A stretch of 64,000 nucleotides of DNA from assembly GCA_916048095.2 (NCBI GenBank), contig OU696579.1, positions 1,077,001-1,141,000 on the forward strand. The letters run 5' to 3'. The notes below the pieces were generated by a model. The model was not told the origin of the DNA, did no database searches, and saw nothing but the letters and a program-made list of their open reading frames with translations. Numbering within the stretch: the first letter of the stretch is position 1; each line of letters begins with the position of its first letter. Below, piece after piece: positions 1,209-16,200 of the stretch. Position numbers and translations under genes: made by a program. The DNA is from Sacculina carcini. Its lineage: Eukaryota > Arthropoda > Thecostraca > Sacculinidae.

Positions 1209-4200
1209 CGCTGGGAAGATATGGCGGGCAGTTTGGTCGTGACAGTGAAACGAGCCCGTCTCTCCCACTACAGCAGCCAGTAGCAACACTTGTCTCAAAT
1301 ACTCGCCGAACTGAGTCACACTCAAATGACCATGTGTGTCTGATAACTGCGAAAACATGTCTGTTCACACACACACACACACACACACACACACACACAC
1401 ATTTTACATTCATTATTTTATCACAGTTTATGTGTATAACTCGATATGCGAGTGAATAAGTGTTGAATTTGTAATTAGTATTTGTAACTTTATATGCCTT
1501 ATTGTCATATCTGCGTATCCAAATTGAAATATGTGTTTGTGTATGTTTGGTGAATTAATGTGTGTGTCCGCTGGTGATTGTATTAGAAAGTGTACGCTAG
1601 CTACGTGTGTTTGTATGTGTGTATGTGTGTGATTTGTATGTTTCTAGTGATTTGTAGGTTTGCACCGTCACAAATGTATATATTTTATGTATATAGTCAA
1701 GTGTGTCAAAGAGTGTGTTTCACTCGACACACTGAGCCTATCAAAATTGTTTCATCTCAATGATGTTATGTATATGTTGGCAATAAACAAACTGAACTGA
1801 ACACACACACACAATACTTATACATATACACAAATATCAACATCATTATACGAGTCTGCAAAAAAACAGTTCTCAGCAAAATTTTCTTATGCACAGTTTG
1901 TTTTGTTTATTGTAGTTATATAAAAAAATTGTGATTGTGGAAAAACAAACTAATTGAACTGGAGTATACACAAATACACGCTCATATACAAATGCACACA
2001 AATAAAATACCCATACATAAACGCACACACACACACACACACACACACACACACACATACACAAAGACACACACACTCACATGCATTATGTATCCACTAT
2101 AAGACCAACATTACTGGATTACACTGGACTAACCATATAAACGTAGTTGTCGAAAATTAAGCGATAGTGTCTATGTGTATGTGTGTGCGTGTCCGTGTCT
2201 ATGTGTGTGTGTGTGTGTGTGTGTGTTTTATTCGTGAATTAATCAGCATAAATTATCACGGAATTTAATTGGTCTCACAATATAACTGCACGGGACTGGA
2301 TAATTAAGCTGACACACACACACACACACATACACACATAGAGACACACACAGACATACACACACACACGCACACACACTGGGGTGTGAAAGTTGTGTAG
2401 TTAATAAGCGCGTGGTTTAGTTTGACAGTCATATGTTGTTCCCAGCTAACGTGAACTGCTGTTACAAGCCAGAATACAGACGAAATGTGACTTTGCCCAC
2501 TGGTTGTATTATTCTAACTCAACATAACCCCAATTTCAAGTCAACAATTATCACTGGCATAATTTCAAGTGAATACCACCGAAATACCAGCTCTTTTGTG
2601 CTAACTACTTGATAAAAAGTTATTAGATAAAGCTATTAGAAAGTTATTGGTCTGTTAGATACAAAACTACATACAATATTAGATAAAAAGCTAACTATTA
2701 AATACAAATAAATAAGTCAAATATTAATAATTAATAACCGAAACAATATAACTGATAATGAGTAATGCGAATAGAAAAAGAGTAACTCTCTTTCTCTCTA
2801 TATCTTATGGGCACTTCCAGTACACATGGGGCCACCGCATTGTGGTAATAGTGACTGAACTCTTATCATGCTACTGAATTTGCCCGTAATTAATCAATAC
2901 TTATTATTATATAAAAGCATTGTTCTTATTAGAAACCGAACCACTATATATGTATATGTGTGTGTGTGTGTTTCTTCGAAAGTTTCGAAATAAATCCGCT
3001 AAATGGTTACCCAATGTCAATCGAGCAATATACCAAAACAGAATCAAGCTTACTTTCAACCGGCACGCATTTGGTTCCAGTTAGAATATCATTTTTTCAT
3101 GATCTACATCATTCTATACTGAATCTGACAAGTTTATATCAGGGATATCACCAAACACACACACACACACACACACACACACACACACACAACGTAATGG
3201 ACCCACAACACTATCGATCACAACACGCAACGATGACACACACGCACGCAGGTAGGCAGGCCAGAGTAGGGTGTGGGTTTTATCAACTGACACCCTGTAG
3301 ATGTAATGGAAGGCGGGAACTACCACAAAACACGAAAAACCTGACTAAAACATGTCTATGTCAAATGACACACAGAAACAGAACGGAAACTTGAAACCTT
3401 GCCGAATATCTGTATATTTGTGTGTTTTTTATATAGTGTATAAATCTAAGCCAAATACACACACACACACACAAAGTTGCCGATTTGTTGGCGACAAAAA
3501 AGTTTGCAAGCGAATCGAAATGTGAGTCCGGTCAAACTTTCTAAACTTACACCAACACACAAGCATACAAGCCAACATGGAACAAATTGTAAAGAGAGAA
3601 GTCCATAGTCGGCGTTCAAGGAGAGACAGGAAAATCACACAAGCGGGGGGGGGGGGCGCCAGGGGGGGGCTTGGAGAAGTTGAAGTTGTCCGAAAAAGAG
3701 TCAAACAAGAGAACAGACACACACATAGAGAGAGAGAGTGAGGGAGAGAGAGAGGGGAAAACTATCAACAACCGCAAGAAAATAGAAAAACAGAAATAAT
3801 CGAAAAAGATTTACAAAAACATCAGGATTACAAAAACTGTGCAAACATTCTGCGTGCAAAAACAGCGCAAAAGATAACAATAATATAACACACACATACA
3901 CACAGACAGACAGACAGACAAATGAGCATGTCGTACAACTTTGACAGCACGAATTACTTGAGTGGCAAGCAGTCAAGACTCACGCAACCACAATCAACAT
4001 GTCATACACACACACACACACATACACACACACACACACACACACACACTAACTAACACACGAACACCCACACAAACTAACACAACCATACGCACACACA
4101 CACACACACACATTACTTTAACACATATATATCGCGCTTCTCACCTGAAAAAAAAACGTTCATACATATACACAAACTCACACTCAAACACACACTCAAA

Positions 4201-13200: not shown

Positions 13201-16200
13201 TACCGTAAAACCTCTATTTAAGCGGCATGCCGTTTTATTTTTCAAACCTTTCCCCGTAGTGCCGTTCTATTAGAGGTGCCCTTCAAATATACGTTTTACG
13301 GTACATGTAAGATTATTTGTATGTAATATTTAAAATATTTTTAAATATATATATATATATATATATATGGTTTAACAATTATAATATGTATATAGGTAAT
13401 ATGTGGAAGTACGCATGTGTGTGTGTGTGAGTGTGTGATTGAGTAAGCAGGTAAGTAAGTAAGTAAGTCGGCCTTTATTGCGCTCCACAAAAAGTCTGAC
13501 TCTGTGTGACAAAAGTCTGTGTATGTGTGAGTCAAAAGTTTCTATCTGAGTGTGTGTGTGTGTGTGTGTGTGTGTGTGTGTGTGTGTGTGTGTGTGTGTA
13601 TGTGTGTGTGTGTGTGTATGAGTCAGTGTGTGTATGTGTGTGTGTGTGTGTGTGTGTGTGTGTGTGTGAGCCGGACACTCACAACTGGTGCGTTTCTGAA
13701 TATGTCGCAGTTTGGCCGCGCAGCGGTAGGCCGCCAGTCTTATGTGATCGCATTCAGCCCTCGCTTCTTGCACCAGCGTGCGACAGTCGGCGTGACGGGA
13801 GCTGCACGAGGAACTCTGGTCGTCCGACGCACTGTCCATCTCGTCAGCTGATGAATATAACGTAACAGCCGATGATGTCGCAGGCACCACAGATCCTCGC
13901 CTCCGACGTTGATGGTAGTGATGCTCAGCTGACATACACACATACATATACCGTAAATGCTCTATTTATCCGACAGGCTCTAATAATCCGGCACCCTCAG
14001 GTATGGGTTGAAAAACAATCCGGCAGGCTCTAATGATCCGGCACTTCCTGGAAAGGCTTATTGAAACTGCAACCACGATTCAGTTATAGTTCAGCAACAG
14101 TTTATTTAGCAATGGGCGATTACTACACAGAACAATACACTGTGGAGATACGCGTCTTCTCTCGTTCCTGTTAACAGCGCACAATTGTTTGTGCTGCAGT
14201 TTTTGCGCAATCCTACCGTGCGGAGTGACCAAAAATAATCCGACAGGTTGTAATAATCCGGCAGGCTCTTATAATCCGCCACATTTACGGTATACCGTAA
14301 AAGCCCTCTTAGAACGACATGTCGCTCTATTTTTCAAACCTTCCCCGTAGTGCCGTTCAGTTCGACTAGAATTTTCAGAAGATATGACAAAATTTACGGA
14401 TGAAAAAAGAACCGGATAATTTATTGTATATTTATTTAACAAAAGGACAAATAGACGGTGATTGCTGGTAAGTAATTACAAACTTACTAAAAAAATAAGT
14501 CAGTCATAGAGACTATTGTCAAAAGAGAAACATAAATCAAAGTGACGTTCTATTAAAAGTGTCATTCTATTTTTCAATTGTCCCCCAAGGGACAGTTAAA
14601 ATATATATTTCACGGTAGCTTCAATATGAAAAGTGAGCAAATTAGAAGTATCAGTCCAAATTACAGGAGTTAGATGTGTTCACAAATCAAACCAAATATT
14701 CCAGACTAATAATTTCACCACATATGCACACACATATAAGCATGAACGTGTGCACTTCGCCATCCACACCTTCATATGTAGAAATGGAAAAAGGAATCCA
14801 ACATTAACCACCATTGAACAGAACACATTTTTGCGGAAAAAATTCGATATCACAAAAACAACGAAAATGCACAAAAAAGCACTAGTCTCCAATGTGAGTG
14901 CAAGAAGGGAATAATTGAGCTTCTGCGAGCGAGCGACATGTTGTTAGAAGACAGAAAGCCAATCTGGACCACGGTGGCGCGCCGGAACGAATAATTATGA
15001 ATGTAATCGATGCCCCGCATGCAATTACTGCACCACAACAAAACACCAGATAAGACCTGGTCTCTCTCTCTCTCTCTCTGTATGTATGTCTGTTTGTGTC
15101 TGTGTCTGTGTGTGTCTGTTTGTGTGTGCGTGTGTGTGTGTATGTGTGCGTATCTCAGTGAGTTTTAGTAAGCCGGAAAGAGTAAATACTCGTGAGTACC
15201 GCTCTCCAATTATCCTACACTTCCTTGAAATCTTTCACGGATATTTGATTTGTTATGTTTGCCAGTAATTCATTTCGCTGTCTTTTGTTTCTATTTGGAA
15301 ATCAGAATTGAAGCACATAGCAATAGTTTTTGTTTTGTAATAGTTTTCTATCGTGCCCGCTTTTGGACGCTGAGAACTTGAACAAATTCTCTCATTCTGG
15401 ATGTTAAGAATTCGATAATTATTATTAAGTCTCCTCGTTCTCTTCTTTCGTTCAATGTAGACAGATTCATCTTCCCCAATCTCTCCTCGTATTCAAGACC
15501 TTGGTATTCTGGAATTGACTTTGTTATCGCTCATTGTATTTTCTCCGGCATATGTATATGTTTTGTAGGTGAGGATTCCACACACTAACTGCGTACTCCA
15601 GGATCGGCCTCATTATTGTGTGTGTGTGTGTGTGTGTGTGTGTGTGTGTGTGCGTGTGTGTGTGTGTGTGTCAGTGTGTGTGTGTGTGTGTATGTGTGTG
15701 TGTATGTGTGTGTGTGTGTGTGTGTGTGTGTGTGTGTGTGTGTGTGCGTGTGTGTGTGTGTGTGTGTGTGTGTGTGTGTGTGTGTGTGTGTGTTAGTGTG
15801 TCAGGATTTCTACAAATAAAACGAAGAAAATCCACAAGGAATTTGCGCCGGCATAATATTACATTATCAACCGCCCTGACCGATTCTGGGGGAAAATCAG
15901 TTGGATGCATCAAGTAATAATTATAAATTGAAATAACCTGGTATTCGAACGACTTTAGACGAACAAAAACAGAAGAGAAACCCAAGAAAAGAGTGTTTGT
16001 GTTGCTCAGAGAAAAAGTGTATTGTAAAAACAAAGCTGTATGAAGTGCAGTGCATTTTTTGTCCTGTTTGGTGTCAAATACAATTGCGGTGAACATATAA
16101 AAAGTATACCAACGAGACTAATGTCATTGTAGATTTGTAGTTCGCTTGTTTCAACTACCTCAGTGTTTGCAAAATGATCAGTTCTAATCAAACTAGTCGT

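What the first reader, a model, noticed from the sequence alone, without database searches (positions are those of the whole stretch)
1209..13683. Dystrobrevin introns begin with (CA)n and end with (TG)n
Read in the transcript sense, the introns B-C, C-D and D-E each start with a CA run a few bases after the donor (GTGAGTGTCCGG then CTCACACACA; GTAAGAACGACACACA; GTAATTACACTCACACAC) and finish with a TG run just before the acceptor. The intron after exon E also opens GTACACACACAC. CA and UG runs in one RNA are complementary, so intron ends could pair and bring the splice sites together. Complementary AC/GT intron ends that help splicing have been reported in teleost fish. Seeing it in consecutive introns of one invertebrate-like gene, always in the productive orientation, suggests selection or a shared origin rather than scattered microsatellites.
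Basis: partly seen in the sequence, partly recalled or inferred. Interest (0 to 1): 0.75.

Follow-up and report, generated by a model that had tools for sequence, protein, structure and literature searches.

The report
CA-start, TG-end introns in dystrobrevin
In an animal genome crowded with CA/TG repeats, five introns in a row of a dystrobrevin-like gene begin with a CA run and end with a TG run; the two preferences also appear in a sample of other genes, but there they showed no sign of being matched within one intron, so a pairing of the ends remains unproven.

Summary
The gene is on the minus strand. Pfam EF-hand_2 and EF-hand_3 span the joins B-C, C-D, D-E and E-F at nearly full profile length, which supports the exon borders. 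Introns B-C, C-D, D-E, E-F and, partly outside the window, F-G carry (CA)n from +3 to +15 and (TG)n close to the acceptor; the next donor (exon G) has none.

Generality was tested on 72 protein-anchored introns (kept from 114 attempted junctions). Within 40 nt of the splice site, donors have CA in 16 and TG in 7; acceptors TG in 42 and CA in 1. CA..TG occurs 11 times, TG..CA never. Against interior windows of the same introns, donor CA and acceptor TG are both enriched, also without this gene. Whole-genome motif counts support the TG acceptor signal; for the CA donor signal they are mixed.

Outside this gene the two ends are not coupled: odds ratio 0.97, and own-end duplexes are no more stable than permuted ones. 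The likeliest reading is two separate end-specific signals drawn from a repeat-saturated genome, with pairing possible in some introns. (AC)m-(GU)n introns are known from zebrafish: a new member of a known kind.

The parts
13683..13928 (-). exon B (EF-hand_2 begins; donor T|GTGAGT)
   Evidence: in-frame join QKRTS-LHQVDIW; Pfam PF09068 spans the join; the 5' limit is the AG at 13929-13930, not tested by homology
12829..13682 (-). intron B-C, 854 nt
13635..13668 (-). donor CA tract of B-C, +15 to +48
12832..12860 (-). acceptor TG tract of B-C, ends 3 nt before the intron end; the only TG tract of 10 nt or more in this intron
12612..12828 (-). exon C (EF-hand_2)
   Evidence: (tblastn E 3.6e-12 to a recalled human dystrobrevin)
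7714..12611 (-). intron C-D, 4898 nt
12584..12602 (-). donor CA tract of C-D, +10 to +28
7719..7823 (-). acceptor TG tract of C-D, 105 nt, ends 5 nt before the intron end
7628..7713 (-). exon D (EF-hand_2 ends, EF-hand_3 begins)
1361..7627 (-). intron D-E, 6267 nt
   Evidence: junction DKLR-YMFSQ read by hand, the automatic resolver chose another
7577..7616 (-). donor CA tract of D-E, +12 to +51
1366..1401 (-). acceptor TG tract of D-E, ends 5 nt before the intron end
1209..1360 (-). exon E (EF-hand_3)
615..1208 (-). intron E-F, 594 nt
   Evidence: junction read by hand
1174..1206 (-). donor CA tract of E-F (11 and 21 nt, one base between), from +3
637..645 (-). acceptor TG run of E-F (9 nt, in a longer degenerate TGTA/TG stretch), 22 nt before the intron end
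509..614 (-). exon F (EF-hand_3); donor GTACCAGTACCACACACA at 508 downward
   Evidence: exon G with the ZZ domain lies in the neighbouring stretch below base 1

Best explanation
The two ends carry separate, position-specific splicing signals made from the commonest raw material in this genome, the CA/TG microsatellite. A (CA)n tract starting 3 to 23 nt into the intron acts as an intronic enhancer of the donor; a CA-binding protein of the hnRNP L kind is the natural reader (inferred). A (TG)n tract just before AG supplies the uridines of the 3' splice site in place of a classical pyrimidine tract (inferred). Orientation may also be filtered: UG repeats after a donor offer decoy GU donors, and CA repeats before an acceptor offer no uridine (inferred). 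Dystrobrevin is an extreme case in which five of six known donors have a CA tract. Because both tracts then lie in one RNA they can also pair, most plausibly in B-C and E-F, but pairing is a by-product or a helper, not the reason for the pattern.
For: 72 protein-anchored introns: donors CA 16, TG 7; acceptors TG 42, CA 1. Matched interior windows, 52 introns: expected CA 3.45 and TG 7.20, found donor CA 14 and TG 4, acceptor TG 29 and CA 1; donor CA and acceptor TG reached in 0 of 10,000 draws. Without dystrobrevin, 47 introns: donor CA 9 v 3.17 (p 0.0003), acceptor TG 24 v 6.68 (0 of 10,000). CA runs fall off from the donor, 13 of 46 introns in the first 20 nt to 4 of 46 at 180-200; TG runs overlap the first donor bin in 0 of 46 and the last acceptor bin in 24 of 46. 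Ends are independent: OR 0.97 without dystrobrevin; own-end duplex -23.24 v permuted -24.60 kcal/mol, p 0.89. T content at -20..-4 is the same with and without a TG tract, 0.45 v 0.44. Whole genome, one strand, columns anchored at the fixed word: TTGCAG within 10 nt after a (TG)6 tract 468 v 62 for the reversed control; after (CA)6 103 v 46.
Against: The donor half is weaker. Ab initio sets give donor CA 9 v TG 8 of 79 exons, and 1 v 2 of 24 at the strictest cut-off, and 10 v 9 of 131 introns, some of them also in the protein-anchored set. With runs of 6 or more units and without dystrobrevin, donor CA is 4 v 1.63 expected, p 0.053. GTAAGT before (CA)6 is below its reversed control, 97 v 257; AGGTAAG before (CA)5 is above it in the anchored columns, 78 v 50, but hardly in the other pair, 214 v 202. 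The filter half is not significant: donor TG below the interior rate p 0.07 (0.12 without dystrobrevin), acceptor CA p 0.08 (0.10). Introns with a CA donor do not have weaker donors at +3..+6 (p 0.36), so no compensation is seen. A plain enhancer model does not explain why one gene has 5 of 6 while no other sampled gene has more than one. Ends of sense transcripts pair somewhat better on average than those of the antisense reading, -25.99 v -21.68 (not tested). No RNA data.
Confidence: 0.5

Rival explanations
1. End-bridging: the CA tract pairs with the UG tract of the same intron, forms a hairpin-like fold that brings donor and acceptor together, and lets the intron splice with less help from U2AF2, as described for zebrafish (AC)m-(GU)n introns. 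The ends would be selected together.
For: Predicted end-to-end duplexes of the five dystrobrevin introns are -77.4, -69.1, -66.2, -64.1 and -37.7 kcal/mol; four of them are the most stable of 72. In F-G part of this comes from inverted copies of a dispersed repeat beside the ends (seen in the sequences). B-C has one TG tract of 10 nt or more, the acceptor one, and E-F has none, so no competitor. Zebrafish precedent as summarised in passages of PMC9024468 section 3.8 and PMC9198270 section 11.
Against: No association of the two ends outside this gene (OR 0.97, two-sided p 1.0, 67 introns); other cut-offs on 70 introns gave one-sided p 0.13 to 0.38 with dystrobrevin and 0.38 to 0.77 without. Own-end duplexes no stronger than permuted, with or without dystrobrevin. 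Many TG acceptors stand without any CA donor (31 of 42). In C-D and D-E fourteen earlier TG tracts compete, the first 783 to 837 nt from the donor, and in F-G ten. With only 11 CA donors outside this gene a modest coupling could be missed.
Confidence: 0.25
2. Neutral orientation filter: microsatellites arise everywhere; those that would create decoy donors (TG near the donor) or remove uridines (CA near the acceptor) are lost, the rest are tolerated and do nothing.
For: About 5.6% of 40-nt windows of the 264 kb hold such a run, mean of the CA and TG readings; the genome holds roughly 980,000 start positions of (CA)10 over both strands. TG runs are absent from the first 20 nt after donors (0 of 46) and CA runs from the last 20 nt before acceptors (0 of 46).
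Against: A filter only removes; CA at donors and TG at acceptors exceed the interior rate of the same introns about threefold to fourfold, while the deficits themselves are not significant over 40 nt (p 0.07 to 0.12).
Confidence: 0.2
3. Shared origin: the dystrobrevin introns descend from one mobile intron-like element with CA...TG terminal inverted repeats.
For: CA...TG ends are formally inverted repeats, and they occur in consecutive introns.
Against: With dust masking, blastn linked only D-E and F-G among the dystrobrevin introns, by two short segments of dispersed repeat that also occur in introns of other genes (I looked at the rows whose query is a dystrobrevin intron). Tract lengths and spacings differ.
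Confidence: 0.03

Closest known systems
(AC)m-(GU)n introns of zebrafish (Lin et al. 2016, Genome Res 26:12; the paper itself is not held; seen as described in passages of PMC9024468 section 3.8 and PMC9198270 section 11)
   Same: AC repeats near the donor, GU repeats near the acceptor of the same intron; predicted strong pairing of the ends.
   Different: An invertebrate-like genome, several consecutive introns of one gene, introns up to 6.3 kb with many competing TG tracts; U2AF2 independence untested; ends not coupled in the sample outside this gene.
AC and GT repeats as predicted intronic splicing enhancers in fish (Yeo et al. 2004, PNAS 101:15700; only its citation was seen, in PMC2481429; content recalled)
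   Same: Short AC and GT repeats in introns read as enhancers without requiring pairing.
   Different: Here a clear polarity, CA at the donor and TG at the acceptor, in a non-vertebrate-like genome.
hnRNP L with CA repeats, TDP-43/CELF with UG repeats (Hui et al. 2003 and Buratti et al. 2001 seen in the reference list of PMC13174678, whose discussion links HNRNP-L to AC and TARDBP to GT repeats; CELF recalled)
   Same: CA and UG repeats in introns as protein binding sites that change splicing.
   Different: TDP-43 is reported to promote skipping of CFTR exon 9 (title of a listed reference; the UG tract at its acceptor is recalled); here UG tracts stand before many exons of conserved proteins.

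Membership tests
zebrafish-type (AC)m-(GU)n introns | AC repeats near the 5' splice site | tested here: met
   5 of 6 known dystrobrevin donors, CA from +3 to +15
zebrafish-type (AC)m-(GU)n introns | GU repeats near the 3' splice site of the same intron | tested here: met
   5 of 5
zebrafish-type (AC)m-(GU)n introns | predicted whole-intron fold more stable than in ordinary introns of the same length | tested here: inconclusive
   only the two 70-nt ends were paired: -38 to -77 kcal/mol v mean -23.24 in 67 other introns; whole introns were not folded
zebrafish-type (AC)m-(GU)n introns | the two repeats occur together in introns more than independently (a class, not two signals) | tested here: inconclusive
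   no association outside dystrobrevin, OR 0.97, 67 introns, only 11 CA donors
zebrafish-type (AC)m-(GU)n introns | splicing without U2AF2 | not testable with these tools
   needs depletion and RNA data
dystrobrevin/dystrophin family gene | EF-hand_2, EF-hand_3 and ZZ in that order | tested here: met
   PF09068 1.4e-30, PF09069 9.9e-18, PF00569 4.1e-09 on joined exons B-G
dystrobrevin (not dystrophin) | dystrobrevin coiled coil after ZZ | tested here: inconclusive
   one downstream exon resembles it (LVSELHALHCRR..., tblastn E 7.8e-05 to a recalled human sequence)

The most novel reading that the evidence does not exclude
This animal uses a CA-donor/UG-acceptor intron grammar across its genome, UG tracts being the ordinary 3' signal, and in some genes such as dystrobrevin the two ends have been matched so that the pre-mRNA bridges its own introns: an invertebrate counterpart of zebrafish (AC)m-(GU)n introns, arisen independently from a microsatellite-saturated genome.
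Probability: 0.2. Interest if true: 0.75.

Novelty: new member of a known kind. Interest (0 to 1): 0.45.

Why it matters
If CA donors and UG acceptors are functional here, a repeat-saturated genome offers many natural replicates for separating three ideas that are hard to tell apart: protein-read CA and UG signals, end-to-end RNA pairing, and neutral tolerance of microsatellites. It would also show how a genome copes with, or makes use of, very many dinucleotide tracts inside its genes.

Tried and rejected
Ab initio gene finder with a full state model: few genes and the dystrobrevin exons not found, dropped. The exon-chain method recovered 15 of 20 known kinesin introns exactly (its codon table was trained on the same genes) but chained unrelated genes in the 264 kb, so its counts are reported only as a weaker second set. 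Whole-genome donor patterns are hard to read because GTAAGT itself resembles a TG tract; the TG twin of the AGGTAAG pattern did not complete. Donor compensation (weaker donors where CA is present) was tested at +3..+6 and not seen. Clustering of CA donors by gene outside dystrobrevin: none, 0 within-gene pairs v 1.96 expected. First motif counts around CA and TG runs in the 264 kb were swamped by degenerate repeat.

Junctions dropped before counting: 42 of 114 attempted (20 of 47, 5 of 32, 17 of 35), because no reading gave protein continuity, because model positions were missing, or because competing sites were equal. Selection was by eye with the flanks in view, a possible bias. Some dropped rows appear to have CA at the donor (L022 first intron, CCT C18a third) and some TG (CNOT9 fifth). 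Six kept junctions were chosen by hand over the resolver's top pick or without one: DTNA D-E, E-F and F-G, L022_1, L023_0 and L025_0; in L024_3 the donor and acceptor of two candidates were combined by hand. Kinesin loci L034, L036 and L037 were fetched but not resolved. In one search two rows were cut at a wrong neighbouring tag; they were corrected, and searches use the corrected set.
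Full report
What is there. The gene lies on the minus strand of the window, which is contig C11:1077001-1141000 of a 264 Mb genome in 43 contigs. Its exons B to F are at 13928-13683, 12828-12612, 7713-7628, 1360-1209 and 614-509; exon G with a ZZ domain lies about 1.5 kb below window base 1. Joined in frame, B to G match Pfam EF-hand_2 (residues 22-144, profile 3-123 of 123), EF-hand_3 (148-235, profile 1-89 of 89) and ZZ. By my count of the peptide the first two matches contain the joins B-C, C-D, D-E and E-F, and their lengths (123 and 88 residues for 121 and 89 profile positions) leave no room for a large gap, so these borders do not rest on splice-site motifs alone. 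The identity as dystrobrevin rather than dystrophin rests on a later coiled-coil exon and a recalled human sequence.

The finding itself. CA starts at +15, +10, +12 and +3. TG ends 3, 5, 5 and 22 nt before the intron end. The E-F acceptor run is short (9 nt) inside a degenerate TGTA stretch. F-G is a weaker fifth case, with 8 nt of CA. The next donor, after exon G, has no CA tract.

How much of this is chance. The genome is full of this repeat: exact (CA)10 has 486,002 start positions on one strand and 492,236 on the other (long runs count many times). In the gene's span the chance that a random 40-nt window holds a run of four or more units is 0.056 for CA and 0.142 for TG, so 5 of 5 donors with CA is unlikely (5e-7, naive). 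TG tracts are the commoner kind inside the long introns: C-D and D-E each hold 15 TG tracts of 10 nt or more. A TG tract at an acceptor is therefore less surprising than a CA tract at a donor.

Is it the gene or the genome. I assembled 72 introns with protein-supported borders: 30 kinesin introns (27, 3), 15 CCT chaperonin introns and 27 from seven genes in the 264 kb around the window (the five of dystrobrevin included). 114 junctions were attempted and 42 dropped. Within 40 nt and with runs of four or more units: donor CA 16, donor TG 7, acceptor CA 1, acceptor TG 42; CA..TG 11, TG..CA 0, TG..TG 5, CA..CA 0. Drawing one random interior window from each of the 52 introns that could be sampled gives CA 3.45 and TG 7.20 on average, against donors CA 14, TG 4 and acceptors CA 1, TG 29. 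Leaving dystrobrevin out (47 introns), donors CA 9 v 3.17 expected (p 0.0003) and acceptors TG 24 v 6.68 (0 of 10,000 draws). In this sample both preferences extend beyond this gene.

Results against. With runs of six or more units and without dystrobrevin the donor excess is 4 v 1.63, p 0.053; the deficits of TG at donors and CA at acceptors are not significant over 40 nt (p 0.07 to 0.12). Two ab initio sets, built with splice-site weights blind to repeats beyond position +6, show the acceptor bias (TG 13 v CA 0 of 79 exons; 31 v 2 of 131 introns, some shared with the protein-anchored set) but equal CA and TG at donors (9 v 8; 10 v 9); at the strictest cut-off donors were CA 1, TG 2 and acceptors CA 0, TG 7 of 24. 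Those sets contain false exons. Whole-genome patterns, columns anchored at the fixed word: TTGCAG after a TG tract 468 v 62 for the pattern read backwards, after a CA tract 103 v 46 (the reversed hexamer contains CG, which may lower the control). GTAAGT before CA 97 v 257, before TG 852 v 1127. AGGTAAG before CA 78 v 50 (other column pair 214 v 202), its TG twin unanswered. That the anchored columns count each site once is inferred from the listings.

Do the ends belong together. If introns were selected for pairing, CA donors and TG acceptors should occur in the same introns. Outside dystrobrevin they do not do so more than expected: 6 of 11 introns with a CA donor have a TG acceptor, against 31 of 56 without (OR 0.97). 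Other cut-offs on 70 introns gave one-sided p 0.13 to 0.38 with dystrobrevin and 0.38 to 0.77 without. Duplex energies between 70-nt ends average -23.24 kcal/mol for own ends and -24.60 for permuted ends (p 0.89); with dystrobrevin included -25.99 v -25.86 (p 0.45); the antisense reading of the same ends averages -21.68. The power is limited by 11 CA donors. Dystrobrevin does stand out: four of its ends give the most stable own-end duplexes of the 72, and it has 5 CA donors where no other sampled gene has more than 1. In F-G part of the duplex comes from inverted copies of a dispersed repeat beside the ends (sequences).

Mechanism. Shown: positions and polarity. Inferred: that the tracts are read. 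CA runs fall off from the donor (13 of 46 introns in the first 20 nt, 4 of 46 at 180-200), TG runs are absent from the first 20 nt after donors (0 of 46) and stand in the last 20 nt before 24 of 46 acceptors. This fits end-specific signals: CA as a donor-side enhancer of the hnRNP L kind, UG as the source of uridine at the acceptor. T content at -20..-4 is equal with and without a TG tract (0.45 v 0.44). Pairing is physically possible and without a competing tract in B-C and E-F; in C-D and D-E the donor tract meets fourteen earlier TG tracts during transcription, in F-G ten. This ordering argument is inference.

Relation to known systems. Introns with AC near the donor and GU near the acceptor are known from zebrafish, said to fold across the intron and splice without U2AF (Lin et al. 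2016, not held; described in passages of PMC9024468 and PMC9198270). AC and GT repeats as intronic enhancers in fish are recalled from Yeo et al. 2004, of which only the citation was seen. I saw no report for an invertebrate in the listings; this library holds only part of the literature. I therefore call it a new member of a known kind: it meets the sequence features of the zebrafish class, the class-defining coupling is inconclusive and the U2AF2 test could not be made.

Noticed in passing
window 143-157, 454-468, 970-984, 6270-6284, 44441-44455, 50884-50898, 51188-51202: A 15-mer like a hAT-type terminal repeat (CAGTGGTTCCCAACC; the hAT label is recalled) occurs 7 times with up to 2 mismatches, 0.11 expected. 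Near-complementary copies sit near both ends of intron F-G and could pair independently of CA/TG.
   Followed up: partly
introns of the sampled genes: Inside introns TG runs outnumber CA runs in transcript sense, 228 v 92 in 46 introns (174 v 76 in 41 without dystrobrevin), a strand asymmetry with no explanation here.
   Followed up: partly
G000 C11:1881371-2062534 and elsewhere: More than 20 full-length kinesin motor domains in uninterrupted reading frames, eight of them along this stretch of C11, beside multi-exon kinesin genes: apparent retrocopies or an intronless expansion.
   Followed up: no
window 20762-21149: A clean 11-bp tandem array, 35 copies of GTACAAAGTGA.
   Followed up: no
window 11237-11526: A 33-bp minisatellite with a 133-bp higher-order period inside intron C-D.
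   Followed up: no
C11 BCS1L-like gene, window coordinate about 173780 (outside the window): A GC donor (CTCGG|GCAAGT) followed by a CA tract; GC donors also fit two kinesin introns.
   Followed up: no
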